The notes under the pieces were generated by a model, which saw only the letters and a list, made by a program, of their open reading frames with translations, had not been told where the DNA came from and searched no databases. Below, in pieces: positions 3,988 to 25,161 of a stretch of DNA of 64,000 bases (its first letter is position 1; the number at the start of each line of letters is the position of its first letter). The translations under genes and the position numbers were made by a program. The stretch comes from Trinickia symbiotica (GTDB lineage Bacteria; Pseudomonadota; Gammaproteobacteria; Burkholderiales; Burkholderiaceae), in the NCBI RefSeq assembly GCF_002934455.1, contig NZ_PTIR01000011.1, positions 1 through 64,000 of the forward strand, written 5' to 3'.

Positions 3988-4126
3988 GATCATCTCTTTT
4001 TTGTGCCGACGCACTGCGAAGGTCTGCTATGGCGACACGTTGGGTAAGCCAACTCGAACAGTAGATGACGACTCCCTCTTCCATCGGACAGGACGGAGAG
4101 ATGACTCGCTGATATGTTCAAGCGGC

Positions 4127-5071: not shown

Positions 5072-5324
5072 ATTCGTCTCCTAAAGACCAACAAGTGTCA
5101 ACAATTGGCTTGGACGAGCTACGGCTCTGCCAATCGCATTAATTTAAGTGGCTACCGGCGGTCAGCCGCGCGTATGACTCCAACAACAAACTGATTTTCA
5201 GAATCTCGAGCGATTCCAACCCTGCCCCCAAATTGCCATGCAGATGAACTTCGGCTGCGCGCGTAACTCGCAGACCAAACCTAACGAGTTGAAGATTGAA
5301 CGCGCCGTCAGCCGTTAAACTGGC

Positions 5325-9722: not shown

Positions 9723-9756
9723 TCTCGTTCCTAGCTCAAGGCGGCAAATGTCACGA

Positions 9757-10746
9757 TTAGTCGAAGCGCAGTTGCGTTTTGACCGCGCTGCTCGATGCCA
9801 TTTTCTGGACGGCCGCACCAAAATCCCACACTGAGTACGTCTCGCCGATGAGCTTGCCGGCGGGTTGCGCAATGTCGTACATCAGATCTACCGCTGCAGG
9901 GAATTGGTTGGCCAAAGAGTTCGACCCAATGATGCGTAACTCGTGCTCGTAAATCGTGAACGGATTGACTTCAACAATTGCCTCGACGTTGTGGACGCCT
10001 ACCTGCACCAACACGCCCGTCTTGCGGATGTGGTTGAGAGCCATGCGCAAGGCCGGCATCGCGCCAGCGGCTTCAAAAACGACTTCATATCGCTCGTCGC
10101 CGAGCTGTTCAGGCGTCGCAACTTTGTGCGCACCGACGTCCACGGCGATCGGGTGCTTGCCCTGGTTCGGATCAATCACCGTTACTTCCGCCGCGCCGTG
10201 GTGCCGTGCGATGATCGAAGTGAGCAATCCCATAGTCCCTGCACCGATCACGAGCACTCGCCGATCCCTGACGCCTTGCGATGATTCAACCGCGTGCAGC
10301 GCACAGGCGAGCGGTTCTATCAGAGCGGCCACTCCGTAACCGATGCTCTCTCGAACCACATGAGCGTTCTGTCCCGGAACCACGACCTGTTCAGCGGCGG
10401 CACCTGGGCGCCCTACTCCGATGGGGGTGAGCGCGTTGCAAAGATGAGGCTTGCCCTCCTTGCACCATTCGCACGCGCCGCACGAAACGTTGGGGTTGAC
10501 CGCGACAAAATCGCCTTCCTTGATTCCCTTGACTTCACGGCCGGCCGCGACAACGTGGCCAGCGAACTCGTGACCAGGCGTGACCGGATAATTGGTTCCA
10601 GGAAAGCCGTGCTGGCAAATATGAAGGTCCGTTCCGCAGATTCCGCATGCGACCGGTCGGACAACAATTTCCCTATCCTTGGCAATCGGCGCAGGAAGCT
10701 CGATGACGTCAATCTTGTGGTTACTTTCAATACGGACGGCACGCAT
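9757..10746 (-). CDS. Zinc-binding medium-chain alcohol/polyol dehydrogenase
   Basis: 329-residue MDR-superfamily dehydrogenase. The catalytic zinc ligand is in CGICGTDLH (C34/C37 region) with H59-E60 in TPGHEFAGHV. The four structural-zinc cysteines C89, C92, C95 and C103 are all present. The NAD-binding Rossmann motif VLVIGAGTMGLL lies near residue 165. This is the layout of sorbitol, threonine and other polyol dehydrogenases. It probably oxidises the imported polyol to a ketose for the FGGY kinase. It sits 34 bases from the kinase gene and 35 from the permease gene, inside one operon. It is slightly short for the family (usually 340-350) but ends naturally. Confidence 0.88.
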   Translation of the reverse strand: MRAVRIESNHKIDVIELPAPIAKDREIVVRPVACGICGTDLHICQHGFPGTNYPVTPGHEFAGHVVAAGREVKGIKEGDFVAVNPNVSCGACEWCKEGKPHLCNALTPIGVGRPGAAAEQVVVPGQNAHVVRESIGYGVAALIEPLACALHAVESSQGVRDRRVLVIGAGTMGLLTSIIARHHGAAEVTVIDPNQGKHPIAVDVGAHKVATPEQLGDERYEVVFEAAGAMPALRMALNHIRKTGVLVQVGVHNVEAIVEVNPFTIYEHELRIIGSNSLANQFPAAVDLMYDIAQPAGKLIGETYSVWDFGAAVQKMASSSAVKTQLRFD

Positions 10747-12635: not shown

Positions 12636-13982
12636 TTATTTGATGTAACCGGCGTCTTGCATGATGTCGGTCATCTTCTTCTGGGATGCATTGATGGCCT
12701 CATCAACCGTCACTTGTCCGCTAATCGCACCTGAGATTTGCTGTGACGTGAAGTCGCCGATTTGCTCGAACTCCGGGATATCTACGTATTGAACACCCGA
12801 GTACGGAACCGGCTCGATCGTGGGACGCAGCGGGTCGGCCGAATTGATCGACTGGAGCGTCAAGTCGCCGAACGACGCAACGGCCTTCTTATATTCGGGA
12901 ATCTGGTAAGTCGAAGTCCGCGAACCGGGCGGCACTTGGCCCCAACCGGCTTTTTCGCCTGCCAACTTGATGTATTCCTGGCTCGTGAGCCACGAGATCA
13001 GCTTCCATGCTGCGTCCCGGTTCTTACTCGTGGTAGGAATCGACAGACCCCACGCCCACAACCAGCCCGAAGCCTTTGTTGCCTTCACCGGGGCCATCGC
13101 AAAGCCGACGTTGTCCTTCACGCCCGGACCCGCTTGATCGAGCACCGGGCCTGCAAAGACGGTGTCGTCGTACCACATCGCCGCATGACCTTGCGAGAAC
13201 AGCTGCAGACACTCCTGCCAGCCGTCTTTCGCCGCGTCCGGTTGGCCGTGCTGGCGAATCAAGTTCACGTAGAAATTGATAGCGGCTTTCGATTCGGGTT
13301 CGGAAAGTGCGGGCTGCCACTTTTGATCGAACCAGCGACCGCCGAATGTGTTGATTACGGTGGTGAGCGATGCGAGGTTTTGGCCCCAGCCGGGAACGCC
13401 GCGAAGACAGATGCCGGAGACACCAGCCTTCTTGTCGTCCAGCTTCGCCGCAAACTGAGCAACCTGATTCCAAGTAGGTGTCTCGGGCATTGTCAGACCA
13501 GCTTTTGCAAACAGGTCCTTCCGATAAAACATGAATGAAGACGAACCGTAAAACGGCGTCGCGAACAGATTTCCCTTATAGGAAACCAGATTGCGGATCG
13601 GCCTCAGAAGATCCCCTTCGTTCCAGGCGGTGTCCGCCTTAGCGTACTGACTGAGGTCGACGATCCAGCCCTTCTGTGCCCACAGCGGCACTTCATACGC
13701 GCCGATCATCACCACGTCGTATTGGCCGGACTTCGTTGCGACGTCCTTCAGCACGGCGGGACGCAGCTGATTTTCCGGAAGCGTCTGAAAGCGAACCTTG
13801 ATATCCGGGTATTTCTTCTCGAAGTTGCCGATAAGCTTCGCCGCGGTCTGCATTTGCGGGTTGGCGGCGAGCGCAACTGTCAGTATGGTTTCGCTGTATG
13901 CAAGCGTTGCAAATCCCAATCCCAAAGAAGCAATGAGGCCGGTTTGCACAGCGAGCAAGCGCAGTCGAGCCGAGTATTTCAT
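12636..13982 (-). CDS. Extracellular sugar-binding lipoprotein-like/periplasmic protein (MalE-type, CUT1)
   Basis: 448-residue periplasmic binding protein of the type II fold (SBP_bac_1). A Sec signal peptide of about 30 residues ends near AYS-E. There is no lipobox cysteine, so it is a soluble periplasmic protein. The mature part has NFEKKYPDIKVRFQTLPENQ and PFYGSSSFMFYRKDLFAKAG, the pattern of sorbitol/mannitol-type binding proteins such as SmoE. PTTSKNRDAAWKLISWLTSQ is the usual late helix. It is the first transport gene after the regulator and the likely specificity component. A polyol ligand is inferred from family resemblance and from the dehydrogenase next door. Confidence 0.88.
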   Translation of the reverse strand: MKYSARLRLLAVQTGLIASLGLGFATLAYSETILTVALAANPQMQTAAKLIGNFEKKYPDIKVRFQTLPENQLRPAVLKDVATKSGQYDVVMIGAYEVPLWAQKGWIVDLSQYAKADTAWNEGDLLRPIRNLVSYKGNLFATPFYGSSSFMFYRKDLFAKAGLTMPETPTWNQVAQFAAKLDDKKAGVSGICLRGVPGWGQNLASLTTVINTFGGRWFDQKWQPALSEPESKAAINFYVNLIRQHGQPDAAKDGWQECLQLFSQGHAAMWYDDTVFAGPVLDQAGPGVKDNVGFAMAPVKATKASGWLWAWGLSIPTTSKNRDAAWKLISWLTSQEYIKLAGEKAGWGQVPPGSRTSTYQIPEYKKAVASFGDLTLQSINSADPLRPTIEPVPYSGVQYVDIPEFEQIGDFTSQQISGAISGQVTVDEAINASQKKMTDIMQDAGYIK

Positions 13983-14008
13983 TTAGTACTCCTAATTTAT
14001 TGGGCGGG

Positions 14009-14029
14009 TACGCCGGTCTGTTCGGCGTA
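14009..14029 (-). promoter_or_regulatory. Stem-loop between regulator and binding-protein genes
   Basis: A perfect 7-bp stem (TACGCCG / CGGCGTA) with a 7-base loop lies in the 59-base gap between the GntR gene and the binding-protein gene. There is no T tract, so it is not a simple terminator. Hairpins here often stabilise or set processing of the abundant binding-protein message. That role is inference. Confidence 0.35.
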
Positions 14030-14041
14030 GTACGTTGGACC

Positions 14042-14815
14042 TTAGTCGTTGTTCAAACCTGCCTGCGCGTCTACCGTCACCTTCACGACGTCACTGCGCA
14101 GCCATGACGTATAGAAATCAAAAGGCTTGCCGTCGGCGCCCCACGAGACGGAGGTCACGAGCAGCAGCGGTGAGCCAGCTGGCACCTCTAGCAGAGCGGA
14201 CAACGGCTCAGTCGCCGCTACTGCCTCGACGCCACGGCGAGCACGGGTCACGTCGTAACCTGCCGCCCTCAGGGTGCGGTTGAGCGAGGCACCGCCGGTC
14301 AACGCTTCGCTGGAGCGCAGGACGCTTTCGATTTCCAGCAACATATAGTTGACCGAGTACAGCGCCAGCTCACCGTCGAGTCGGCGCAGTCGAGCCAACT
14401 TGAAGCCACCGCTACCCGATTTGAGATCCAGCGCTTGCGCAACGTGATCCGGCAAGATGCATCGCTCAGCTTCGAGAACCTTCGTTTCCACCGAACGGTG
14501 CTGTTCAACTTCCACTTCAAAGAAGCCCTCAGCAACTTGTAACGTCCAGCCGGATTGCGCCTGGTCCGCCACGAAAGCCCCCCGGCGCGGCACCATTTTG
14601 ATCCTGCCTTGGTCCGCCAGATGTCGAAGCATCTCGCGCACCGTCGAGCGTGCCAACTCGTAGTCACGGCAAAGATCGCTTTCAGAGGGCAGCCGGTCGC
14701 CGGGCGCATAGTCGCCGCGATCGATCGCTTGCTCCAGCAATTGCGAGAGCTGCAAATAGTAGGGAACCGGCGATGAGCGGTCGATTCCCGGCGCAAGCGG
14801 AGTAACGGCTTTCAT
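14042..14815 (-). CDS. GntR-family transcriptional regulator (HutC/UTRA subfamily)
   Basis: 257-residue regulator. The N-terminal winged helix-turn-helix covers about 20-85 (DRLPSESDLCRDYELARSTV, then a REMLRHLADQG recognition region and a PRRGAFV wing). The rest is a UTRA effector-binding domain of the HutC type, with LARLRRLDGELALYSVNYML and a C-terminal DFYTSWLRSDVVKVTVD. It leads the long leftward operon and faces the aldolase gene. Two perfect palindromes upstream are its probable operators, so it likely represses itself, the operon and the aldolase until a pathway sugar phosphate binds. Confidence 0.9.
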   Translation of the reverse strand: MKAVTPLAPGIDRSSPVPYYLQLSQLLEQAIDRGDYAPGDRLPSESDLCRDYELARSTVREMLRHLADQGRIKMVPRRGAFVADQAQSGWTLQVAEGFFEVEVEQHRSVETKVLEAERCILPDHVAQALDLKSGSGGFKLARLRRLDGELALYSVNYMLLEIESVLRSSEALTGGASLNRTLRAAGYDVTRARRGVEAVAATEPLSALLEVPAGSPLLLVTSVSWGADGKPFDFYTSWLRSDVVKVTVDAQAGLNND

Positions 14816-14835
14816 ATCGGTTCGTGATGTAGGTG

Positions 14836-14847
14836 TTGTACGTACAA
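14836..14847. promoter_or_regulatory. Putative GntR operator 1 (perfect palindrome TTGTACGTACAA)
   Basis: Twelve-base perfect palindrome located 21-32 bases upstream of the regulator start codon, within its leader. The same 12-mer recurs at 14943. HutC-type regulators bind short palindromes with a GT-N-AC core, which this fits. Confidence 0.6.
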
Positions 14848-14927
14848 GATGGAGGCGAGTATAGGCGTCGCGAAATCGAAAAAGAAGATGGGGTTCTCAC
14901 CTACTTTTGTACGTTCTGTTCGTGTGT

Positions 14928-14954
14928 ATCATACGGTACGTCTTGTACGTACAA
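14928..14954 (-). promoter_or_regulatory. Candidate promoter of the leftward GntR operon overlapping operator 2
   Basis: On the complement strand TTGTAC (part of operator 2) is followed after 15 bases by TATGAT, a plausible sigma70 -35/-10 pair with a short spacer. The start would lie near 14921, about 105 bases before the GntR start codon, so operator 1 would sit inside the transcribed leader. Operator binding would cover the -35 box. Confidence 0.35.
14943..14954. promoter_or_regulatory. Putative GntR operator 2 (perfect palindrome TTGTACGTACAA)
   Basis: Second exact copy of the 12-mer, 107 bases from the first, close to ten helical turns. A half-site (TTGTACGT) lies between them at 14908-14915. 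TACACT at 14959-14964 could be the -10 box for the rightward aldolase gene, putting this operator in its promoter spacer. Confidence 0.6.
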
Positions 14955-15024
14955 CACGTACACTTTTCCAACTGGGTCGCTTCGATTTAGCTTTCGCACC
15001 CAAATCTTCGCTAGGGACGCTCTT

Positions 15025-15807
15025 ATGTCTATGGAATACCGCCTTCGTCGTACGCTGCCCAGTAACCGTGTGGCGATCATCATGCCGGTCGATCACGGCC
15101 TTATTTTTGACCGCATCGAAGGCCTCGAGACGCCGTCCGCGCCGTTTGCCGCGTGGGGCGAGAGCGACGTGACCGGCTTCATGATGACGCCGGGCCAAGT
15201 ACGTCAAACTGCGCGGTACTTTGCAGCTCACCCTCATCTCACGCGGGTTCTGACGATCGACACCTACTACGACTACCGGAACCTGGATGGCGGCGGCTCA
15301 CACGGCCTGATCACCAATGTGGAAGAAGCTGTTCGTATGGGCGTCGACGCAGTCAAAATGTTGTTCCCCTGGAACATGTCTCGTGCTGAACAAGTCGCCA
15401 TGTGCACGCGCGTCGGGCAAGTGGTAAACGAGTGCAATCGCTGGGAGATCCCGCTCGTGCTCGAACCGGTCATCATAGGTGCGCCGCGTACCGAGGAAGT
15501 CATCAAGCAGGAAGAGAAGGTCGCGCGCATTGCTTACGATTTGGGCGCGCACGTCATCAAGATTGCATTCCCCGGCGAAGAGCGCACCAAACGTCTCGTC
15601 GACGAATTGAAAGTACCGCTGGTCATCGCAGGCGGCCCGCTGACTGGCACCCCTGCCGACACGATCGATGCGGTCGCGCAGACCATTCGTTCGGGCGCGC
15701 GCGGCGTGATCGTTGGCCGCAACATCTGGCAGCGGGAACGCGCCGAGGGTCTGCAGGTCCTGTCCGAAGTGGCCAAGTTGACCCGCGCGCAAAAGTTCAA
15801 CGACTGA
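15025..15807 (+). CDS. Class I aldolase of the DhnA/FbaB/LsrF family
   Basis: 260-residue cytoplasmic aldolase of the DeoC/FbaB/LacD group (Schiff-base TIM barrel). The barrel shows IIMPVDHGLIF, GVDAVKMLFPWNMS, IPLVLEPV, AHVIKIAFPG and PLVIAGGPLTGT. The lysine in HVIKIAF is in the position of the Schiff-base lysine of DhnA-type enzymes. RGVIVGRNIWQR is the phosphate-binding end seen in LsrF and DhnA. I start at 15025 (MSMEYRL), seven bases after AGGGA. An ATG at 15031 is also possible. It is divergent from the GntR operon and shares its operators. It likely cleaves a ketose phosphate into dihydroxyacetone phosphate and an aldehyde. Confidence 0.82.
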   Translation: MSMEYRLRRTLPSNRVAIIMPVDHGLIFDRIEGLETPSAPFAAWGESDVTGFMMTPGQVRQTARYFAAHPHLTRVLTIDTYYDYRNLDGGGSHGLITNVEEAVRMGVDAVKMLFPWNMSRAEQVAMCTRVGQVVNECNRWEIPLVLEPVIIGAPRTEEVIKQEEKVARIAYDLGAHVIKIAFPGEERTKRLVDELKVPLVIAGGPLTGTPADTIDAVAQTIRSGARGVIVGRNIWQRERAEGLQVLSEVAKLTRAQKFND

Positions 15808-15899
15808 GCTCTGCCGCCAAAGATGCTCGAACTCGCGCAGCCTCCTGATCGAGCGCTGCGCCGGTTTCAGTTCCGCGTACGCATCACTCCCACTCGGCA

Positions 15900-16793
15900 T
15901 CAACGTTTCCTGCGTTCTCCTTCTCGCGCCAATACATGCTCGGCGCATTCAAGAAGCCCGTTGATCAAACGTGCGCGAGGCGATGCCCTGTGCCAAAGCA
16001 CACCAAAGCGCCGCGGTTCAGTCTTGCTCGGTAGTACCATCCTTGCGATGGCGAGCCCCGCTGTCAAAGGCGAGATGATGTCCGGTACGAGCGACACCCC
16101 GAGCCCACGGTCGACCATCATCGCGATGGCCGTCAGCGAATTCAGTTCGAACAACTCGTGCGGAACGATTTTCGCCGCGCGGAGGTATTGATCAGCTTGC
16201 TTGCCGCCGCCGAGCGAACGGTCATAGCGAATAAATGGCTCGCGGCGCAGCAATTCGTGCGGTTCCTCATCCTTCATTCGCAAGGGCGCCAGCACGACAA
16301 TCGGCTCCTCGCGCAACAGATGCCAGTCATAAGCCTTGGGGAGCGCAAATGCCGGATGAAGGCAGATCGCCACATCGAGGTCTCCGCGCTGCAGCGTCTC
16401 GTACAACTCCATCGACGTCCCTGCACGGATCAGTACCTTGGCTCGAGGAAACGCAGCCGCGAAGTTTGCAAGCACGTCAGGCAAGAGGCTTAGGAGCGCC
16501 GTGGTAATCGTGCCGATCCGCAACTCACCCGCCGCTTCGCCTTCCAGCGCGAAGGCCTTGAGTTCCGAGCATTCACGCACGAGTCCCCGCGCCTTGTCGA
16601 TCACGCGATGCCCGGCTTCCGTGGGAATGACCGTGCGCCCGGCGCGCACGAAAAGCGACACGCCCAGTTCGCGCTCGAGCGCTTGAATCTGCTGGGCGAC
16701 GGCCGCCGGCGTCACACCGATACGACGCGCCGCTTCGGCCATTGAACCGCTATCGACCACGAGCAGCAGATTGGCGAGAAAATCGATGTCCAT
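15900..16793 (-). CDS. LysR-family transcriptional regulator
   Basis: 297-residue LysR regulator of normal length. The winged helix-turn-helix (1 to about 60) has SMAEAARRIGVTPAAVAQQI, then LERELGVSLFVRAGRTVIPT. The C-terminal two-lobed effector domain begins GELRIGTITTALLSLLPDVL, and MMVDRGLGVSLVPDIIS is the usual late motif. It is divergent from the lyase-transferase-transporter operon with 97 bases between start codons, the classic arrangement in which it activates its neighbour. The effector is probably the imported hydroxy acid or its CoA ester. Confidence 0.92.
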   Translation of the reverse strand: MDIDFLANLLLVVDSGSMAEAARRIGVTPAAVAQQIQALERELGVSLFVRAGRTVIPTEAGHRVIDKARGLVRECSELKAFALEGEAAGELRIGTITTALLSLLPDVLANFAAAFPRAKVLIRAGTSMELYETLQRGDLDVAICLHPAFALPKAYDWHLLREEPIVVLAPLRMKDEEPHELLRREPFIRYDRSLGGGKQADQYLRAAKIVPHELFELNSLTAIAMMVDRGLGVSLVPDIISPLTAGLAIARMVLPSKTEPRRFGVLWHRASPRARLINGLLECAEHVLAREGERRKR

Positions 16794-16795
16794 GA

Positions 16796-16841
16796 AGATA
16801 GTTTATCTATTATTTGAAGATAGACGTAGATAGTTCATCTA
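16796..16841. promoter_or_regulatory. LysR-type operator region with repeated AGATAG half-sites
   Basis: The divergent gap contains AGATAGTTTATCT (16796-16808, a dyad with a 3-base centre) and TAGATAGTTCATCTA (16827-16841, a dyad with a 5-base centre), plus a lone AGATAG at 16818. The paired sites, one next to the regulator start and one towards the operon, match the recognition and activation sites of LysR proteins. Confidence 0.5.
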
Positions 16842-16890
16842 AATCCATAACAGTCTTAGACTCCTTTCCAGACATAGAAGGACTGGAGAC

Positions 16891-17817
16891 ATGAGAAGCA
16901 AGCTCTTCGTGCCGGCATCGCGTCCGGAGCTTTTTGCCAAGGCGTTCGCGAGCGCCGCCGATGCGCTGTCCTTTGATCTGGAGGATTCAGTCGCCGCCGA
17001 ACGCAAGCAGCAGGCGCGCGATGCGCTTTGCGAACTGCTGCGCTCGAACGAGATTGCCGGCCATACGAAAGTGCTGATCGTTCGCGTGAATGCGTTGGAC
17101 ACGCCGCATTTCGCCGCCGACATTGACGCCGTGGTTCAGCAAGGCCTGGAATACATCAATCTTCCGAAGCCCGAGACGGTCGATGACGTTCGTGCGGCCG
17201 CATCGGCGATTGAGCGGGCGGAGCGGGCGAACACCATCAGCCGGCCCATAAAACTGCTGCTTAACATAGAGTCGCCGAAAGCGTTTCGCCACGCAGCCGA
17301 ACTGGCGAGCGCCCATCCGCGCGTGGCGGGGCTGCAACTGGGTCTCGGCGATCTGTTCGAGCCGCTCGGCGTCGGTCGCGGTGACGTGGCCGCAGTCCAG
17401 CAGGCCATGTTCGGGTTGCGTATCGCGGCGGGCGAAGCCGGCGTCTTCGCCTACGACTCCGCATTCGCCAATATCAAGGACGAAGCCGGCTTCCGCGCCG
17501 AGGCGCAACTCGCGCGATCGATGGGCTTTCTCGGCAAGAGTTGCATTCACCCGCGCCAGATCGCGCTCGCGAACGAGGTCTTTCGCCCCTCTGACGAAGA
17601 CATCGCGCATGCGGTGCGTGTCGTCGAGGCGGCGCGCGACGCTGACGCGAAGGGCATCGCCGCCTATGTGGTCGACGGCCGCATGATCGATCCTCCTTTC
17701 ATCGAACGCGCACGCGCGCTCATCGCCCAGGCACAGCGGCTCGGCTTGCTGACGGGCGAACAGCGCCTCGCACTCGCAAGCGCGCATGCCGAAATCTGCG
17801 ATGCGCAAGCACGCTGA
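16891..17817 (+). CDS. HpcH/HpaI aldolase / CitE-family acyl-CoA lyase
   Basis: 308-residue enzyme of the citrate lyase beta / malyl-CoA and citramalyl-CoA lyase family. Motifs are RSKLFVPASRPELFAKA at the start, the acidic metal-site strand LSFDLEDSV (about 29-37), LLLNIESPKAF with the metal-binding glutamate, YDSAFANIKDEAGF, and the C-terminal GKSCIHPRQI. These are the standard catalytic blocks. It should cleave a hydroxyacyl-CoA to acetyl-CoA plus a keto acid (glyoxylate, pyruvate or similar). GGAG lies before the ATG. The CoA-transferase gene follows 25 bases later, so the two probably act in sequence. Confidence 0.87.
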   Translation: MRSKLFVPASRPELFAKAFASAADALSFDLEDSVAAERKQQARDALCELLRSNEIAGHTKVLIVRVNALDTPHFAADIDAVVQQGLEYINLPKPETVDDVRAAASAIERAERANTISRPIKLLLNIESPKAFRHAAELASAHPRVAGLQLGLGDLFEPLGVGRGDVAAVQQAMFGLRIAAGEAGVFAYDSAFANIKDEAGFRAEAQLARSMGFLGKSCIHPRQIALANEVFRPSDEDIAHAVRVVEAARDADAKGIAAYVVDGRMIDPPFIERARALIAQAQRLGLLTGEQRLALASAHAEICDAQAR

Positions 17818-17842
17818 CTCACTCGAACGGAAGGAGAATTTC

Positions 17843-19048
17843 ATGCAAGCATCGGCCAATCACGCCAGTGCCGCGAGCGCGGACCCGCTCACGGGCGTGC
17901 GCGTGCTCGATCTGAGCGCTTATATCGCCGGCCCGTACGGATGCACGCTGCTCGCCGATCAGGGCGCCGACGTCATCAAAATCGAACCGCCCACGGGCGA
18001 CAATCTGCGCAAATATCCGTCGACGCTCGAAGCAGAAAGCCGCGCATTCCTCGGCGTGAATCGCGGCAAGCGTGGCCTCGTGCTCGATCTCAAGCAGCCG
18101 GAGGCGCTCGCGGTGCTGATGCGCCTTGTTGAAGCCGCCGATGTGCTTATCCACAACTTTCGCCCGAGCGTGCCCGAGCGGCTCGGTATCGCCTATGAGC
18201 AGTTGCGCGCGGTCAATCCGCGCCTGATCTATTGCGCGGTGACCGGCTACGGCGACACCGGCCCGAACAAGGACAAGGCGGGATACGATCAGGTGCTGCA
18301 AACGATGACGGGTATGTGCACGCTGCAAGGCAAGCGCGGCGGACCGCCCGAGATACTGTACGGATCGGTGGTCGACTACTACGCTGCCGCCCTCGTGGCG
18401 GCGGGTGTGTCGTCGGCGCTCTTCGAGCGCGAGCGTAGCGGCGCCGGACAATATGTCGGCGTATCACTGTTGCGCAGCGCGCTGGCGATGCAATCGGCTC
18501 GCATGATCTGGGCCGAGGGCGAACCGAAGGACATCAGCCGCGACATGCGCTCTGGCGGCATCACCGGCATCCATCCGACACGCGAAGGCTATCTGTACAT
18601 TTCGGCCAACACGCCGCATTTCTGGCAATCGCTCTGCGAGAAGACCGGCCTAGCATCGCTGGCGCAGAACGAACGCTATGACTCGGTACGCAAGCGCGCA
18701 CTGCATTGCGACGAAATCATTCCGCAGTTGCACGCTGCACTTCAGGCGCGCACCGCGCTCGAATGGGAAGCGCACTTCGGCGACGCCGTACCCTGTGCGG
18801 CCGCGCGCAGTGTCGAAGATATGTTCGACGACCCGCAAGTGTTGGCGGAAGACATGGTGACCCGCTTCGACTATCCGGGCATCGGCACCTATCGCGGCAT
18901 CAAGCATCCGATTCGATTCGGCACAACGCCTGGACGCGATCCCGCAGCCGCGCCCGCATTCGGCCAGCACTCCGATGCGCTTTTGCGCGAGTTCGGCTGG
19001 ACGGACGACGCGATCGAGTCGCTGCGCGCGAAGCGCGCGGTGTTGTGA
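17843..19048 (+). CDS. CaiB/BaiF (class III) CoA-transferase
   Basis: 401-residue class III CoA-transferase, usual length for the family. It starts TGVRVLDLSAYIAGPYGCTL, continues GADVIKIEPPTGD and LDLKQPEALAVLMRLVEAAD, and has the catalytic aspartate D149 in KAGYDQVLQTMTG, which forms the acyl anhydride and CoA thioester intermediates. The ATG at 17843 follows AAGGAG. It likely moves CoA from succinyl-CoA to the hydroxy acid brought in by the transporter downstream, making the substrate for the CitE-like lyase upstream. The exact acid is unknown. Confidence 0.88.
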   Translation: MQASANHASAASADPLTGVRVLDLSAYIAGPYGCTLLADQGADVIKIEPPTGDNLRKYPSTLEAESRAFLGVNRGKRGLVLDLKQPEALAVLMRLVEAADVLIHNFRPSVPERLGIAYEQLRAVNPRLIYCAVTGYGDTGPNKDKAGYDQVLQTMTGMCTLQGKRGGPPEILYGSVVDYYAAALVAAGVSSALFERERSGAGQYVGVSLLRSALAMQSARMIWAEGEPKDISRDMRSGGITGIHPTREGYLYISANTPHFWQSLCEKTGLASLAQNERYDSVRKRALHCDEIIPQLHAALQARTALEWEAHFGDAVPCAAARSVEDMFDDPQVLAEDMVTRFDYPGIGTYRGIKHPIRFGTTPGRDPAAAPAFGQHSDALLREFGWTDDAIESLRAKRAVL

Positions 19049-19059
19049 GGAGATACGCG

Positions 19060-19143
19060 ATGCCGTTCGATCTACCCGCGCACGCGTGCGACTTTTCTGA
19101 TCGGCCCGGTGGTCTACGGCGGGCGCTGTTGCTGCTGGTCTGA
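19060..19143 (+). CDS. Very short ORF between CoA-transferase and transporter genes (27 aa)
   Basis: A 27-codon frame beginning MPFDLPAHACDF follows a GAGGAG sequence right after the CoA-transferase stop. It has no recognisable domain. It may be a true small peptide, a decayed piece of a lost gene in this operon, or chance. The frame fills most of the 131-base gap. Confidence 0.2.
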   Translation: MPFDLPAHACDFSDRPGGLRRALLLLV

Positions 19144-19179
19144 CGGACGCGCATGAACAAATCGAACGGAGACAGACGT

Positions 19180-20520
19180 ATGGAATCAGCGACGACTCAA
19201 CCAACACGGGCACACGCCCATCCTAAATCGCTGACGGAGCGCTGGTGGGGCCTGTTCGACACGCGCGTCGGCGCGCTGCCCGTACCGGTGTTTTTAGCGC
19301 TATTGGCCGTGCTCGCCGCGATGACGCTAAAGGGCAAGCTCGCTTCGGACCTGCCCACCGGTATTGCGCTGGTGGCGGTCGGCGGTTTCGCATGCGCCGA
19401 ACTCGCAAAACGCATTCCGTGGATTCGCCACATCGGCGCGGCATCGATTTTCGCAGCGTTCATTCCGTCGATGCTCGTCTACTACAAGCTGATGCCCGCG
19501 CCAGTCGTCAAGGCGGTCACCGACTTCACGAAGAGTTCCAATTTCCTCTATCTCTTCATCGCGGCGATCATTGTGGGCAGCGTACTCAGCATGGACCGGC
19601 AGACGTTGATTAAAGGCTTCGTGCGCATTTTCATTCCGGTTGCGAGCGGCTCCGTGGTCGCGGCCCTCGTGGGGACTGGCGTGGGCGTTGCGCTCGGCAT
19701 GCAAGCAAAGCACGCGCTTTTCTTCGTCGTCGTGCCGATCATGGCGGGCGGTGTCGGCGAGGGCGCGCTTCCGCTCTCCGCGGGCTATGCGCAGATTCTG
19801 GGTGTCGAACGAGGACCGCTCTTTGCGCAGGTGCTCTCGGCCGTCATGCTCGGTAACATCGCTGCAATCTGCTGCGCGGGTCTGCTGAGCTACCTCGGCG
19901 CACGCAAGCCCAGTCTGACCGGGAATGGCCAACTCACCATCGCCGGATCGGCTGAGGACACCGCCCACGCGGCCGCGCCTTCGTTCGAATTCGATGTGAG
20001 TTCGGTCGCCGCAGCGGGTGCGACGGCGATCACGCTCTATCTGCTCGGCGTGCTGAGCCATCAACTGTTCGGCTGGCCCGCTCCGGTCGTCATGCTGGTG
20101 CTCGTGGTCGCGGCGCAGTGCTTTCAGGTGGTGTCGCCGCGCGTGCGCGGCGGGGCACGCTTCATGTATGGCTTCTTCTCGACGGCCGTCACCTATCCGC
20201 TGATGTTCGCCATCAGCGTCGCGATGACACCGTGGGGCGAAATTGTCACCGCGTTTCAGTGGATCAATATCGTGACGGCTGTGTCGACGGTGCTTGCGCT
20301 GACTGCGACCGGATTCTTCGTTGGACGCATGGTAGGGATGTATCCCGTGGAAGCGGCGATCGTGAACGCGACGCATAGCGGCCTCGGCGGCACCGGCGAT
20401 GTCGCGATCCTGACAGCCGCCAACCGAATGGAGTTGATGCCGTTCGCGCAGATCGCGACGCGCATCGGCGGCGGCGTTACCGTGATGACCGCGCTGGCCG
20501 TGTTCGCTTACTTGCGTTAG
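19180..20520 (+). CDS. 2-hydroxycarboxylate transporter family protein (CitS/MleP-like symporter)
   Basis: 446-residue inner-membrane protein with about eleven hydrophobic segments and the two re-entrant GGxG signatures of the 2-hydroxycarboxylate transporter family: GGVGEGALPLSAGYA in the N half and GGTGDVAIL in the C half. Characterised members carry citrate, malate or lactate with Na+ or H+, or by exchange. I start at 19180 (MESATT) because GGAG lies eight bases upstream. The earlier ATG at 19153 has no clear site. Operon context suggests it imports the acid activated by the CoA-transferase. Confidence 0.87.
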   Translation: MESATTQPTRAHAHPKSLTERWWGLFDTRVGALPVPVFLALLAVLAAMTLKGKLASDLPTGIALVAVGGFACAELAKRIPWIRHIGAASIFAAFIPSMLVYYKLMPAPVVKAVTDFTKSSNFLYLFIAAIIVGSVLSMDRQTLIKGFVRIFIPVASGSVVAALVGTGVGVALGMQAKHALFFVVVPIMAGGVGEGALPLSAGYAQILGVERGPLFAQVLSAVMLGNIAAICCAGLLSYLGARKPSLTGNGQLTIAGSAEDTAHAAAPSFEFDVSSVAAAGATAITLYLLGVLSHQLFGWPAPVVMLVLVVAAQCFQVVSPRVRGGARFMYGFFSTAVTYPLMFAISVAMTPWGEIVTAFQWINIVTAVSTVLALTATGFFVGRMVGMYPVEAAIVNATHSGLGGTGDVAILTAANRMELMPFAQIATRIGGGVTVMTALAVFAYLR

Positions 20521-20965: not shown

Positions 20966-21873
20966 TCACGGCCGACGTCCGATGTCGCAGGCATGAAGAA
21001 TCTTCGGGACATGGTTCTGGCAGAAGGTCAGGTATGTCCGAACAATAGTCGAGGGATGGCGATGGGATGGATAAAGGAGGTTGATGGGCTGCTCGGGCAA
21101 CGGAAACTGCGGCAGCAATTGCACGAGGCGCTTCTCCTGAATAGGCGCAGCCGCTAGAAAAGGCGGCAACTCAGTTAGCACATCATTAGCGAGCGCACGC
21201 ACGCACGCACGCACAAGTGATGATAATCGTTGGTGGACAGAAGGGCCTTTGGCTCGATGATATGCCCAGCCAAGTCCCATCGTGCCGGGGCATCGACACT
21301 CGACATCCATACAGCGCACGGGAACCGATAGAGTTCGTCGGGTAGTGCCGGCACGCCGAGGCGCTCCACTAGCTTCGGGTTAGCTACTAGAACATGGCGA
21401 TAGGACAAGATGTGTCGCGCCACCATAGCCTCGTGAACGATCGAGCCGACACGCAGGGCGACGTCGATGCCGTCCTCGATTAAATCCACCCGACGTTCAG
21501 TTGAGTAGACGTGGACTTGGATGTCCGGATAGCGGCGCTGGAACGCCGCAAGCAAATCCCACCATGGCTCAAAAGACTGAGGGAACGATAGCCGTAAGCG
21601 CCCTTTCAACTGCGCCTGATCGCTTACGATGGCTTGCTCGGCCTCAAGTAGCGCCTCGATGCCACGACTAGCCTGCTCGTACAGCTTTGTTCCGGCATCA
21701 GTCAGCCTCACCCCTCGCGCCGAGCGCTCCAGCAACTGCACCATAAGCTGCCGTTCCAGCTCCCGTATCCGACGGCTCAGCGTTGGCAATGGGATTCCAA
21801 GACGGCTCGCCGCCGCCGAAAGACTACCCGCCGGGACGACGGTAACGAACATGTGAGTGGCGTTCAGGTCCAT
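20966..21873 (-). pseudogene. LysR-family regulator, frameshifted in a GTGC tetranucleotide repeat
   Basis: The N-terminal 225 residues (start 21873, MDLNATHMFVTVVPAGSLSA) form a normal LysR helix-turn-helix and first effector lobe. The frame then breaks in a run of GTGC units (21195-21214) and ends after a few codons (LCVRACVRSLMMC). The missing C-terminus continues in another frame as LANDVLTELPPFL, then RLVQLLPQFPLPEQPINLLYPS to a stop at 20966. Removing two repeat units (8 bases) would give a 299-residue protein of exact family length with the expected NDxxxL-ALA-LPPFL spacing. It is divergent from the metallo-hydrolase gene, which it probably regulated. Confidence 0.8.
21195..21214 (-). 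repeat. Five tandem GTGC tetranucleotide units inside the LysR gene
   Basis: The plus strand reads five perfect GCAC units (GTGC on the coding strand). The LysR frame is open through the repeat only if the unit number is a multiple of three. Five copies put it out of frame. Tetranucleotide tracts of this kind change length by slipped-strand mispairing. Confidence 0.85.
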
Positions 21874-21987
21874 ACGGCATGCCTCTCATAACTGAGAGGC
21901 GGCTTCCAATTTTTGACAATGTTAATTCATTTATGGCAACGATATCCTGTTGCCTTAAAGATCTCAATTCCAAGAATGAGGACGCGT

Positions 21988-23361
21988 ATGCAACAGACGT
22001 GGACATGTCGAATGAGGACATTTATGGCGATAGTCACAACCATAGCGACGCTAACTGCAACAAATGGCGTGGCCGCACCTGACGAATTCGCGGGGAGCGA
22101 GAAGCTGAAGGCGCACTCCGAGGAATTTCGGAAGCGCGTCGTCGAAGTAACGGATGGCGTGTACACCGCCATCGGCTACTCCGCCAGCAACGTCACGCTG
22201 ATCCAGGCCGACAACGGGTCGATCATCGTCGATACCTCGGCCAACCCGGTCGATGCTCAAGCGATCATCAATGCCTTCGGGGATCGCATGACCAGACCTG
22301 TGCGTGCGATCATCTACACGCACAACCACCCCGACCATTCCGGCGGTGCGACGATATTCGCGGGCAATGACAAGCCCGAGATCTACAGCCACCAATTGCT
22401 GGTCTCGGCTAAACCCGACACGGGACGCGGCCGGCGCGATGGCGGCGATGTATTCGGAACCGCTCTGCCCGACGACCAGTTCATCAATGCCGGCACCCAG
22501 CTCGAATACGGCAGGAAGACGCCGCACGCGCGCGAGGGTTTTCTCCCGCCTACGAAAACCTTCGACGGCGAGCAACAAAGCCTGACGATTGCCGGCGTGC
22601 GGATGCAGCTCATCCTCACCCCCGGCGAGGCTGACGAAAACATCTCCGTCTGGCTGCCGGACCGCAAGGTACTGATCGCTGGCGACGTATTTCTGAAGAC
22701 ATTCCCCAACATTGCCCCCCTTCGCGGACTCCCCACGCGTCCGGCGGACAAATGGGTCGCCAGCCTAGACAAGCTGATCGCTCTGAATGCCAAATATGTC
22801 ATTCCCGGCCATATGAGCACACTAGCCGGCGCGGACAAAGTCAGGGACGCTCTCACGGCTTATCGGGACGGTATCAAGTTCGTCTATGACAAAACCATGG
22901 AAGGGATCAGCAGGGGGAAGACCCCAGATGAGTTGGTTCAGGAAGTAAAACTTCCAGCGCGGCTAGCGCAACACCCATATCTACAAGAGTATTACGGCAC
23001 TGTAGCTTGGTCAGTGCGCGGCATCTATTCGCAAAATGCTGGTTGGTTCGACGGCAACCCAACGCATATCTTCCCGCTGACCGAGAAGGAACGAGCGGAA
23101 AAAGTCATTGCGCTGGCAGGTGGAAAAGAAAAAATGTTGGAAGGCGCGGAAGCATCGCTTTCTGTCGGTGAGTTTCAGTGGGCCGCCGAGCAGGCCGACT
23201 ATGTTCTTGCCATCGCACCGCAGAGCAATCGGACAACCATAATAAAGGTGCGCGCGCTTAGAGAACTGGGCGGGCGTCAGATGAATGCCACGGCGCGCAA
23301 TTACTATCTGACAGTCGCGCAGAGCCTAGAGAAAGGCCTCCAAGCCGGTGGCTCAAAATAA
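21988..23361 (+). CDS. Secreted metallo-beta-lactamase-fold hydrolase with alkyl-sulfatase dimerisation domain
   Basis: 457-residue protein with a hydrophobic signal region ending near VAA-PDEF. The metallo-beta-lactamase domain has the zinc motif HNHPDH at 112-117 (THNHPDHSGG), SIIVDTSANP before it, and ISVWLPDRKVLIAGDVF after it. From about 280 it resembles the dimerisation domain of SdsA-type alkyl sulfatases (GTVAWSVRGIYSQNAGWFDG). It ends there, without the C-terminal SCP2-like domain of full-length SdsA enzymes of about 650 residues. I chose the ATG at 21988, after GAGGA. ATGs at 22012 and 22024 are alternatives. A periplasmic sulfate-ester or related hydrolase is likely, with the substrate unknown. 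Confidence 0.75.
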   Translation: MQQTWTCRMRTFMAIVTTIATLTATNGVAAPDEFAGSEKLKAHSEEFRKRVVEVTDGVYTAIGYSASNVTLIQADNGSIIVDTSANPVDAQAIINAFGDRMTRPVRAIIYTHNHPDHSGGATIFAGNDKPEIYSHQLLVSAKPDTGRGRRDGGDVFGTALPDDQFINAGTQLEYGRKTPHAREGFLPPTKTFDGEQQSLTIAGVRMQLILTPGEADENISVWLPDRKVLIAGDVFLKTFPNIAPLRGLPTRPADKWVASLDKLIALNAKYVIPGHMSTLAGADKVRDALTAYRDGIKFVYDKTMEGISRGKTPDELVQEVKLPARLAQHPYLQEYYGTVAWSVRGIYSQNAGWFDGNPTHIFPLTEKERAEKVIALAGGKEKMLEGAEASLSVGEFQWAAEQADYVLAIAPQSNRTTIIKVRALRELGGRQMNATARNYYLTVAQSLEKGLQAGGSK

Positions 23362-24007: not shown

Positions 24008-24643
24008 ATGCAACACACTCCGGGTACGATGCCTTCCACTGATAAGACGCTCGAACAAGCGGTCCTGGCGCTCGCTGAGCGCCAGCCGCTGCTGCGCGCC
24101 CGCGATCTGGTCGAACAAGGGCTGCCGACCATGGTGCTCAGCCGGCTCGTTGCGGCGGGCAAGCTGGAACGCGTCGCCCGCGGCGTCTACAGCCTGCAAG
24201 GGCGCGCCCCGAGCGAGCATCGATCTCTGGCCGAGTCCGCACTGCGCGTGCCACGCGGCGTGGTGTGCCTGCTGTCGGCACTGCGCGTTCACGGCATCGG
24301 CACACAGGCCCCCTTCGAGGTCTGGATGGCGATTCCCCCACATACACCCACGCCGCGCCTAGATCAGCCGGCCCTACGCGTGGTGCGCATGTCAGGCGAA
24401 GCCCTGACCGAAGGCGTCGAGCACATGGAGATCGATGGCGTACAGGTGCCCGTATTTAACTTGGCCAAGACGGTGGCGGACTGCTTCAAGTACCGCAACA
24501 AGATCGGCCTTGACGTAGCCCTGGAAGCGCTGCGCGATGGCTGGTCGCAGCGCAGGCTCACGATGGACACGCTCTGGCACTACGCGACAGTCAACCGCGT
24601 GACCAATGTCATGCGCCCCTATCTCGAGAGCGTGACTATATGA
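24008..24643 (+). CDS. Type IV toxin-antitoxin system antitoxin AbiEi
   Basis: 211-residue AbiEi-type antitoxin and transcriptional regulator. The N-terminal winged helix (RARDLVEQGLPTMVLSRLVA, then GKLERVARGVYSL) is the AbiEi_4 DNA-binding domain. The C-terminal part (VFNLAKTVADCFKYRNKIGL, then DVALEALRDGW) is the characteristic antitoxin domain. AbiEi proteins bind inverted repeats upstream of their own operon and block toxicity of the AbiEii nucleotidyltransferase without lasting contact. The stop overlaps the AbiEii start (ATGA). An internal ATG at 24029 is a possible alternative start. This protein looks intact, unlike its partner. Confidence 0.85.
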   Translation: MQHTPGTMPSTDKTLEQAVLALAERQPLLRARDLVEQGLPTMVLSRLVAAGKLERVARGVYSLQGRAPSEHRSLAESALRVPRGVVCLLSALRVHGIGTQAPFEVWMAIPPHTPTPRLDQPALRVVRMSGEALTEGVEHMEIDGVQVPVFNLAKTVADCFKYRNKIGLDVALEALRDGWSQRRLTMDTLWHYATVNRVTNVMRPYLESVTI

Positions 24644-25161
24644 GCCGCAACCTCGCCGCCTCCATCCGGGCCCGCCTGAAGCAGCACGCGGATGCCTCGC
24701 TGGATGGCGCGCGCATTGCGCTGCAGGTGGATATCGGTTTCGGTGATGCCGTCACGCCGGCACCTGAATCCGTCAACTACCCCGTGCTGCTCGACGATCT
24801 GCCGGCTCCACAACTGCGGGCCTATCCGAAGTACACCGTGGTGGCAGAGAAGTTTCACGCAGTGTGCCTGCTGGGCATGGCCAACACCAGCATGAAGGAT
24901 TACTTCGATCTCTGGGTGTTGCTGACCGAGGAGAGCTTGGACCCTGCCGCACTGCATCGCGCATTCCAAGCCACGTTCGCCCGGCGAAGGCTGACCATCC
25001 CCGAAGCGATCCCCGCGGGCCTGAGCGACGCCTTTGCGCAGGACGCCACGAAGCAGAAGCAGTGGGCAGCCTTCCTGAAGAAGAACCGCCTGCAGCCTTT
25101 GGACCTTGTCCAAGTCGTGGGGCGGATGCGCGATGAGTTCCAGCGACTTCAAGCGCGCTGA
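24640..25161 (+). CDS. AbiEii-type nucleotidyltransferase toxin with its catalytic region deleted
   Basis: 173-residue protein. Residues 1-20 (MSRNLAASIRARLKQHADAS) match the AbiEii N-terminus. The sequence then jumps straight to LDGARIALQVDIGFGD and follows the family to its end (YPKYTVVAEKFHAVCLLGM, then KDYFDLWVLL). Full-length relatives have about 300 residues, so roughly 110-120 are missing. The missing part carries the nucleotidyltransferase GS-x-R/DxD catalytic motif. The deletion is in frame, with the junction near 24700. The gene start overlaps the antitoxin stop. The product should be catalytically dead but may still fold in part. Confidence 0.8.
   Translation: MSRNLAASIRARLKQHADASLDGARIALQVDIGFGDAVTPAPESVNYPVLLDDLPAPQLRAYPKYTVVAEKFHAVCLLGMANTSMKDYFDLWVLLTEESLDPAALHRAFQATFARRRLTIPEAIPAGLSDAFAQDATKQKQWAAFLKKNRLQPLDLVQVVGRMRDEFQRLQAR

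What the first reader, a model, noticed from the sequence alone, without database searches (positions are those of the whole stretch)
16796..20520. Compact LysR-controlled hydroxy-acid pathway: transporter, CoA-transferase and CitE-like lyase
A 2-hydroxycarboxylate symporter, a class III CoA-transferase and a CitE-family lyase form one operon. They would import an acid, make its CoA ester and split it to acetyl-CoA and a keto acid. There is no hydratase, so the substrate is likely already hydroxylated (malate, citramalate or a methylated relative) rather than itaconate.
Basis: inference. Interest (0 to 1): 0.52.

Follow-up and report, generated by a model that had tools for sequence, protein, structure and literature searches.

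The report
Shortened hydroxy-acid breakdown operon, lactonase lost
This bacterium carries a small gene set that probably imports a hydroxy acid, tags it with coenzyme A and splits it; comparison with relatives shows that two genes were lost by a clean deletion, one of them probably opening a ring-shaped (lactone) form of the food molecule, which narrows down what that molecule can be.

Summary
In detail: a divergent LysR gene, a CitE-type lyase, a class III CoA-transferase and a 2-hydroxycarboxylate (2HCT) transporter lie at 15900-20520. The inference that the operon is naturally compact fails. In Caballeronia arvi (88-90% DNA identity) two more genes lie between transferase and transporter: a COG3618 lactonase-like amidohydrolase and an AtoE-type carrier. 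The window keeps the first 32 bases of one fused to the last 55 (one now lost) of the other: a deletion of about 2.17 kb. Of 70 related loci, 70 have the transferase and 54 the amidohydrolase; 53 of those 54 have AtoE or a TctC gene directly behind it, while 0 of the 16 others has AtoE or TctC at that place. I read this as two entries: a lactone, opened by the lost enzyme, and the open acid, the only entry left here. Transporter pocket residues lean towards a 2-hydroxy dicarboxylate but do not exclude citrate. Lyase, transporter and lactonase constraints together suggest 2-hydroxyparaconate/itatartarate, a fungal itaconate derivative; malate or citramalate remains at least as likely for the open acid. 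No substrate is proven. It is a new variant of a known kind of pathway (CoA activation plus CitE-type cleavage).

The parts
15900..16793 (-). LysR-family regulator, divergent from the operon
   Evidence: Pfam LysR_substrate 4.3e-34, HTH_1 6.2e-18; 95% identical gene beside the operon in L045/L101
16797..16810 (+). Operator-like site 1 (one mismatch to the 14-base consensus of relatives)
   Evidence: coordinates counted by me from the offset printed there
16829..16842 (+). Operator-like site 2, at the place of the site shared by relatives (one mismatch to the consensus, by eye)
   Evidence: sequences shown; a site with at most one mismatch in 27 of 29 relatives that have AtoE or 2HCT, 0 of 45 other relatives, 0 of 3,700 shuffles
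16891..17817 (+). CitE/HpcH-type acyl-CoA lyase (308 aa)
   Evidence: Pfam HpcH_HpaI 1.1e-41; R65, E127, D154 identical in 75 of 75 sequences aligned
17843..19048 (+). Class III (CaiB/Frc) CoA-transferase (401 aa; an in-frame start at 17786 overlaps the lyase and is less likely)
   Evidence: Pfam CoA_transf_3 4.5e-118; Asp of the GYD motif identical in 71 of 71 aligned
19060..19091 (+). Remnant: first 32 bases of the lost lactonase-like amidohydrolase gene
   Evidence: blastn: window 15893-19091 = L101 3100-6294, 88.3%; alignment
19090..19091 (.). Deletion junction (2-bp overlap); about 2.17 kb missing relative to Caballeronia arvi
19090..19143 (+). Remnant: end of the AtoE-type carrier gene up to its stop codon (54 bases here, 55 in L101)
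   Evidence: blastn: window 19090-20520 = L101 8465-9897, 90.5%; window 19090-19143 = L100 14381-14435, 81.8%; alignment
19180..20520 (+). 2-hydroxycarboxylate transporter (446 aa; another in-frame ATG at 19153)
   Evidence: Pfam 2HCT 5.3e-138; solved relative CitS, E 7e-53

Best explanation
This is a deletion-shortened copy of a conserved, LysR-controlled catabolic operon for a 2-hydroxy acid of the form HOOC-C(OH)(R)-CH2-COOH. In the full operon of relatives one carrier (AtoE-type, or a tripartite tricarboxylate binding protein) brings in a monocarboxylate lactone and the COG3618 amidohydrolase opens it; a second carrier (2HCT, or another tripartite binding protein) brings in the open diacid. 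The class III CoA-transferase moves CoA from a donor such as succinyl-CoA onto the CH2-COOH end, and the CitE-type lyase cleaves the 3-hydroxyacyl-CoA into acetyl-CoA and a 2-oxo acid. In the window about 2.17 kb was deleted, taking the lactonase and its carrier, so only the open-acid route remains. Shown: gene content, conserved operator-like site, the deletion and its two remnants, co-occurrence of amidohydrolase and its neighbouring carrier in relatives, conserved catalytic residues. Inferred: the reactions, the CoA donor, the roles of the two carriers, the substrate.
For: Deletion: window 15893-19091 = L101 3100-6294 and 19090-20520 = L101 8465-9897; the right remnant also matches Collimonas L100. 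In 17 of 20 family loci read, transferase and transporter lie 2.2-2.6 kb apart; in 3 (L058, L060, L062) they are adjacent. Operon: transferase 70 of 70, amidohydrolase 54 of 70; 53 of 54 amidohydrolase loci have AtoE (25) or TctC (28) directly behind it, 0 of 16 others have AtoE or TctC there (4 of these 16 have 2HCT behind the transferase). Amidohydrolase of relatives: nearest solved sequences are 2-pyrone-4,6-dicarboxylate lactonase (E 7e-34); model pLDDT 88.8, 4mup Z 33.9 and LigI 4di8 Z 32.8; the His, His, His, Asp set is invariant in 23 of 23 aligned. Transporter: sites of CitS N186, Y348, R402 are V, M, L, S405 is T, Q424 and R428 kept in 22 of 22 Burkholderiales operon proteins aligned, the window's included. 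Lyase residues 75 of 75. Operator-like site 27 of 29. dN/dS against L101 0.07-0.16 for all four genes.
Against: No activity is measured. The COG3618 relative 4mup (Atu3138) may isomerise rather than hydrolyse lactones (recalled). Variovorax SRS16 has an amidase and an isochorismatase-type hydrolase and no amidohydrolase annotated in the stretch; Sphingopyxis FD7 and Roseomonas haemaphysalidis have a lyase of this family without it. Sixteen of 70 loci lack it. Homologous amidohydrolases (45-57%) also stand without a lyase. Low dN/dS mostly reflects time before the deletion. One draft assembly; reads were not seen. Many of the 70 loci are close relatives, and one deletion can remove both neighbours, so the co-occurrence counts are not independent.
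Confidence: 0.74

Rival explanations
1. The substrate is 2-hydroxyparaconate / itatartarate, the lactone and open form of a hydroxylated itaconate made by smut fungi: lactone in, opened to itatartarate, CoA ester formed, cleaved to acetyl-CoA and hydroxypyruvate.
For: It is the smallest compound I can draw that meets three constraints: a monocarboxylate gamma-lactone (the LigI carboxylate-clamp Arg130 and Arg217, roles recalled, are Pro and a gap in L045 while Arg124 is kept), a 2-hydroxy dicarboxylate, and HOOC-C(OH)(R)-CH2-CO-CoA for the lyase. A different bacterial protein opens this lactone, and itatartarate is then a dead end in Pseudomonas (PMC9875883, section 2.3 read). Hosts include Collimonas, a genus known for feeding on fungi (recalled).
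Against: The pocket residues V, M, L suit H or CH3 better than CH2OH (my judgement). Genes for hydroxypyruvate are not enriched nearby: Hyi matched 1 of 80 loci, GlxR 2, Gcl 2 (weakly), GlxK 0. A 2024 paper treats the opening of the lactone in Ustilago as possibly abiotic (PMC11626831, passages), which would lessen the need for an enzyme. The hosts are not specific to smuts.
Confidence: 0.22
2. The substrate is malate or citramalate; the amidohydrolase in relatives makes that acid from some other precursor.
For: Pocket resembles carriers that take malate. Use of (S)-citramalate through the itaconate transferase and lyase is reported for Burkholderia xenovorans (passage of PMC9875883). Loci without the amidohydrolase exist (16 of 70).
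Against: Neither acid has an ordinary gamma-lactone, yet 54 of 70 loci carry the lactonase-type gene. Malate is already a central metabolite and needs no CoA route.
Confidence: 0.33
3. The substrate is a tricarboxylate such as citrate or homocitrate (homocitrate has a known lactone).
For: The lyase's best NCBIfam match is CitE (208 bits, cut-off 443). CitP, with a similar V/L/M pocket, carries citrate as well as malate (PMC5451387), and a Klebsiella 2HCT beside citX has V, I, Q at the three sites, so the pocket does not exclude citrate. In Methylobacterium nodulans a citrate-synthase-fold lyase sits with a CoA-transferase, a DASS carrier and an amidohydrolase.
Against: The three CitS residues that hold the third carboxylate are replaced, and at the R402 site the operon's proteins have Leu where four transporters outside it have Gln. 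The M. nodulans amidohydrolase did not match this clade's at E 1e-5 and its transferase is 33% identical. A homocitrate lactone would keep two carboxylates, against the single clamp suggested for the amidohydrolase.
Confidence: 0.15
4. It is the known itaconate pathway with its hydratase elsewhere.
For: Same reaction types for the first and last enzyme; the lyase matches RipC at 161 bits.
Against: 161 bits is far below the 375 cut-off. One MaoC-family dehydratase used as query gave no retained hit in the 80 loci; this is one query only. A 2025 study set aside a Cupriavidus necator lyase-transferase pair of this layout as not itaconate-related (PMC12290011, section read; that it is this clade is my inference).
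Confidence: 0.05
5. The deletion left a non-functional remnant; the remaining genes are decaying.
For: Two genes are gone and the second remnant has lost a further base.
Against: The three remaining operon genes, the regulator and the operator-like sites are intact; dN/dS 0.07-0.16, though mostly from before the deletion. Four Pandoraea loci of 70 have lyase, transferase and 2HCT without the amidohydrolase.
Confidence: 0.1

Closest known systems
Itaconate / (S)-citramalate degradation (Ict, Ich, Ccl; RipABC)
   Same: CoA-transferase followed by a CitE-type lyase giving acetyl-CoA and a 2-oxo acid; citramalate can enter without the hydratase
   Different: No hydratase in the window operon; lyase and transferase score below the NCBIfam cut-offs of the itaconate and mesaconate enzymes; other transporters; lactonase-type gene in most relatives
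Second lyase-transferase pair of Cupriavidus necator, left unassigned in PMC12290011
   Same: Lyase gene beside a CoA-transferase, no hydratase; Cupriavidus necator loci belong to this clade
   Different: No function assigned there; the Cupriavidus layout uses tripartite tricarboxylate binding proteins instead of 2HCT; identity of the two loci not checked
2-hydroxyparaconate lactonase RdoPA (PA0880)
   Same: Opens a monocarboxylate lactone and lies in a cluster with a CoA-transferase and a CitE-type lyase
   Different: [quoted passage not shown] its product was not used further (PMC9875883)
2-pyrone-4,6-dicarboxylate lactonase LigI (COG3618)
   Same: Fold and His/Asp set of the amidohydrolase that the window lost
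   Different: About 30% identity; two of three recalled carboxylate-binding Arg absent; whether LigJ/LigK-type partners occur in these genomes was not searched
CitP / MleP of the 2HCT family
   Same: Uncharged residues at the CitS third-carboxylate sites, Thr at S405, Arg428 kept
   Different: Leu instead of Met at the R402 site; linked here to a CoA route

Membership tests
HpcH/HpaI (CitE-type) acyl-CoA lyase superfamily | Domain match with Mg-ligand Glu and Asp and substrate Arg (roles recalled) | tested here: met
   PF03328 1.1e-41; E127, D154, R65 in 75 of 75 aligned, in register with solved relatives
NCBIfam citE / RipC / haloarchaeal malyl-CoA lyase equivalogs | Score over curated cut-off | tested here: not met
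   208 of 443, 161 of 375, 66 of 500 bits
Class III CoA-transferase | PF02515 with catalytic Asp (role recalled) | tested here: met
   395 bits; Asp in 71 of 71 aligned
Named class III CoA-transferases in NCBIfam (succinate-glutarate, mesaconate, formyl-CoA, oxalate, carnitine) | Score over curated cut-off | tested here: not met
   seven families listed, all under cut-off; best 222 bits against 750
2HCT transporter family | PF03390 and conserved Arg428 | tested here: met
   460.5 bits; Arg in 23 of 23 aligned
Citrate carrier CitS | N186, Y348, R402 for the third carboxylate | tested here: not met
   V, M, L; this does not exclude citrate, see CitP
COG3618 lactonase (lost gene, seen in relatives) | Fold and catalytic residues of LigI | tested here: met
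   residue roles recalled apart from D248
COG3618 lactonase (lost gene, seen in relatives) | Hydrolysis of a lactone | not testable with these tools
   needs an enzyme assay
Itaconate degradation pathway | Itaconyl-CoA hydratase in the cluster | tested here: not met
   no hydratase among the window operon genes. In relatives the test was partial: one MaoC query without a retained hit in 80 loci, eight recurrent neighbours typed, one of them MmgE/PrpD, a family that includes dehydratases
2-hydroxyparaconate catabolism | Activity on 2-hydroxyparaconate and itatartarate | not testable with these tools
   needs an enzyme assay

The most novel reading that the evidence does not exclude
The full operon of relatives is a complete route for the antimicrobial fungal lactone 2-hydroxyparaconate and its open form itatartarate, ending in hydroxypyruvate and acetyl-CoA, with separate carriers for lactone and acid; the window's bacterium has kept only the itatartarate half.
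Probability: 0.2. Interest if true: 0.72.

Novelty: new variant of a known kind. Interest (0 to 1): 0.46.

Why it matters
A conserved catabolic operon of Burkholderiales to which I found no assigned function becomes testable: the lost lactonase-type gene, and the pairing of each proposed entry step with its own carrier, restrict the substrate more than the three remaining genes do. If the substrate is the fungal lactone, this would be a route that consumes it rather than only detoxifying it; the papers seen describe itatartarate as a dead end in Pseudomonas. It also warns that a 'compact' operon can be a deletion product, so a missing enzyme should not be used to infer the substrate before relatives are read.

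Tried and rejected
Reading it as an itaconate cluster: rejected, scores far below cut-offs and no hydratase in the window operon. Hydroxypyruvate-related neighbours as support for itatartarate: E. coli Gcl, Hyi, GlxR and GlxK as queries gave 2, 1, 2 and 0 of 80 loci, the Gcl hits at 26% identity; this counts mildly against. Another copy of the lost genes in the same draft genome: best amidohydrolase 36% identical, best AtoE-type carrier 50%. Amidohydrolase in a phylum-wide sample: 3 of 398 genomes at E 1e-70, contexts not read. A fungal-interaction transcriptome (PMC5209427, passages) showed nothing on this operon. Methylobacterium nodulans looked like an analogous operon with a citrate-synthase-fold lyase, but its amidohydrolase did not match this clade at E 1e-5, so I do not lean on it. 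Amidohydrolase homologues at 45-57% identity occur without an annotated lyase beside them (the plasmid gene tables are incomplete), so this lactonase type is not tied to this pathway alone. The transporter pocket as proof against citrate: dropped, because CitP with a similar pocket carries citrate and a Klebsiella 2HCT beside citX has V, I, Q; the odds for a tricarboxylate were raised from 0.12 to 0.15 and those for the best explanation lowered from 0.75 to 0.74 on this recheck.

Literature: searches of the open-licence library; two returned no paper; of 36, 67, 70, 96 and 97 only the first 20, 15, 10, 10 and 10 of 26, 72, 32, 95 and 14,542 papers were listed. No description of this operon was seen in those listings or in the passages read. 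Subscription papers are not in that library; I saw no LigI structure paper, and LigI residue roles are recalled except D248, which PDB titles support.

Rows dropped before counts: 10 of 80 loci with less than 6 kb downstream; 6 of 80 loci without a clean lyase frame and 7 of 80 without a clean transferase frame under my rules, then 3 of 73 transferases over 450 aa; 23 of 57 amidohydrolases were aligned; 21 clean 2HCT frames plus the window and L041 were aligned. In one search recurrent neighbour groups were listed only down to four loci, and one representative each of eight groups was typed.


Full report
What is in the window. Four genes with intact frames match the finding: LysR (15900-16793, minus), a CitE/HpcH-type lyase (16891-17817), a class III CoA-transferase (17843-19048) and a 2HCT transporter (19180-20520), the last three co-directional. 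The transporter has in-frame ATGs at 19153 and 19180; a GGAGA motif precedes the second, which is also the start in L101. The 97-bp space between regulator and lyase carries two 14-base palindrome-like sites. A site with at most one mismatch to the consensus occurs within 110 bp upstream of the lyase in 27 of 29 relatives that have AtoE or 2HCT, in 0 of 45 other relatives and in 0 of 3,700 single-base shuffles. The consensus came from these relatives, so the count shows conservation, not an independent discovery. It supports LysR control in this branch.

The operon is shortened. Among 398 genomes of the family, 164 have a transporter match and 76 a lyase match at the thresholds used. In 20 loci read around the best transporters, transferase and transporter lie 2.2-2.6 kb apart in 17 and are adjacent in 3 (L058, L060, L062). 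Between them lie an amidohydrolase (PF04909, 3e-47) and a carrier of the short-chain fatty acid type (PF02667, 2e-111), typed in L045. Against Caballeronia arvi (L101, by length and matches the same contig as L045) the window aligns as 15893-19091 = 3100-6294 (88.3%) and 19090-20520 = 8465-9897 (90.5%): about 2.17 kb is missing, with a 2-bp overlap at the junction. The left remnant is the first 32 bases of the amidohydrolase gene, the right one the last 55 bases of the carrier gene, one base of which is lost here. The same right remnant matches Collimonas silvisoli (L100). Best matches to the two lost proteins elsewhere in the draft genome are 36% and 50% identical.

How general the full operon is. 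The lyase clade was fetched with organism names (80 loci kept of 390 that matched). Of 70 with at least 6 kb downstream: transferase 70, divergent LysR 60, amidohydrolase 54, TctC-type binding protein 37, AtoE 25, 2HCT 19. Layouts: lyase-TctC-transferase-amidohydrolase-TctC (23, mostly Variovorax and Cupriavidus), lyase-transferase-amidohydrolase-AtoE-2HCT (15), the same without 2HCT (10), lyase-transferase-2HCT (4, Pandoraea), and smaller groups. By position, 53 of 54 amidohydrolase loci have a carrier gene directly behind it (AtoE 25, TctC 28; in L131 none was found). Of the 16 loci without the amidohydrolase none has AtoE or TctC at that place, 4 have 2HCT behind the transferase, 8 have a TctC on the lyase side only and 4 have no carrier among those queried. 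So two unrelated carrier families travel with the same enzyme. Close relatedness of many rows, and adjacency (one deletion removes both), limit the statistical weight. My reading: one carrier feeds the amidohydrolase, the other feeds the transferase directly. More distant loci that keep amidohydrolase and lyase together are Methylobacterium NMS14P, Pseudoroseomonas, Alloyangia and Marinibacterium. Against this, Variovorax SRS16 has an amidase and an isochorismatase-type hydrolase instead, and Roseomonas haemaphysalidis and Sphingopyxis FD7 show a lyase without it in the stretch read (gene tables incomplete).

The lost enzyme. In L045 it is nearest to 2-pyrone-4,6-dicarboxylate lactonase by sequence (E 7e-34) and, by an AlphaFold model from 23 relatives (pLDDT 88.8), to Atu3138 (4mup, Z 33.9) and that lactonase (4di8, Z 32.8), about a tie. 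The His-x-His, third His and Asp (LigI H31, H33, H180, D248) are invariant in 23 of 23; the residue at LigI R124 is invariant too, but in L045 R130 is Pro and R217 falls in a gap (residue roles recalled apart from D248). That fits a lactone with one free carboxylate. A lactone isomerase is not excluded.

The transporter. In CitS the third carboxylate of citrate is held by N186, Y348 and R402; homology models of CitP and MleP have V, L, M and M, L, M there. CitP carries malate and citrate, MleP malate only (PMC5451387, passages read). The window's protein, placed on CitS by the alignment, has V, M, L, with Thr at S405 and Gln424 and Arg428 kept; the same holds for the 21 relatives aligned, and Methylobacterium differs only by Leu at the Y348 site. 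Four 2HCT proteins outside the operon share V at the first site and M or I at the second but have Gln at the R402 site; one of them lies beside citX. So only the Leu sets the operon's proteins apart. This leans towards a dicarboxylate with an uncharged side group but does not exclude citrate.

The lyase and transferase. The lyase keeps R65, E127 and D154 in 75 of 75 aligned and lacks an insertion seen in malyl-CoA lyases, its best solved relatives. It meets none of the three NCBIfam cut-offs listed. The transferase keeps the Asp of its GYD motif in 71 of 71 and meets none of the seven cut-offs listed. Against L101 dN/dS is 0.09 (LysR), 0.16 (lyase), 0.07 (transferase) and 0.11 (transporter); most of that divergence is probably older than the deletion, so it shows past constraint.

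Substrate. Three limits combine: a CitE-type lyase needs HOOC-C(OH)(R)-CH(R')-CO-CoA (family knowledge); the transporter leans to an uncharged R; the lost enzyme suggests a monocarboxylate lactone. The simplest compound I can draw that meets all three is 2-hydroxyparaconate (R = CH2OH), which opens to itatartarate. It is made by Ustilago from itaconate; a Pseudomonas lactonase opens it, but itatartarate is then not used (PMC9875883, abstract, passages and section 2.3 read). A 2024 paper describes its production, raises an arms race between itaconate-producing fungi and competitors, and treats the opening of the lactone as possibly abiotic (PMC11626831, passages). Against it: the pocket is rather hydrophobic, and hydroxypyruvate genes are not enriched nearby. 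Malate or citramalate fits the transporter as well or better but leaves the lactonase-type gene unexplained. My odds: malate/citramalate 0.33, itatartarate 0.22, tricarboxylate 0.15, itaconate 0.05, other 2-hydroxy acids the rest.

Origin. Of 11 genomes of the window's genus in the sample (this one and ten listed without a match), only this one has the lyase clade at E 1e-60, and the closest lyases with names are from Collimonas and Caballeronia, which suggests horizontal acquisition. The window's genus is unnamed in the data.

Relation to what is printed. A 2025 study of Cupriavidus necator noted a second citramalyl-CoA-lyase homologue beside a CoA-transferase and set it aside as not itaconate-related (PMC12290011, section 'Genome analysis' and passages read). 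A C. necator locus of this clade (L146) carries lyase, transferase and amidohydrolase, so that unassigned pair may be this operon; I did not check locus tags. The searches named in Tried and rejected showed no description of the operon.

Noticed in passing
window 12636-15807: A solute-binding protein of an ABC transporter, a GntR/UTRA regulator and a DeoC/LacD-family aldolase lie just upstream; they may be part of a separate sugar or sugar-acid operon.
   Followed up: no
window 21175-21873: A second LysR gene downstream looks truncated: its substrate domain stops at profile position 142 of 209, near a short CACG-rich repeat.
   Followed up: no
window 24008-25161: An AbiEi/AbiEii type IV toxin-antitoxin pair (Pfam 7.5e-11 and 8.7e-28).
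   Followed up: no
window 21913-23361: A metallo-beta-lactamase-fold protein with an alkyl sulfatase dimerisation domain; 1.3 kb of it is 82% identical in DNA to a Sinorhizobium americanum replicon.
   Followed up: no
L173 9069-13175: In Variovorax sp. J22P240 a DHDPS-family gene overlaps the lyase gene by four bases and a DAO-family FAD oxidase (resembling L-2-hydroxyglutarate oxidase, recalled) sits between transferase and amidohydrolase.
   Followed up: partly
L136 14527-16011: An MmgE/PrpD-family gene stands behind AtoE where other loci have 2HCT; its sequence group spans six of the 80 loci, five of them within 6.5 kb of the lyase (only L136 typed). The family includes the methylsuccinate isomerase of the itaconate cluster (PMC9875883).
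   Followed up: partly
L193 11866-16621: Methylobacterium nodulans: DASS carrier, CoA-transferase, citrate-synthase-fold lyase and an amidohydrolase in a row, a possible analogue with an unrelated lyase.
   Followed up: partly
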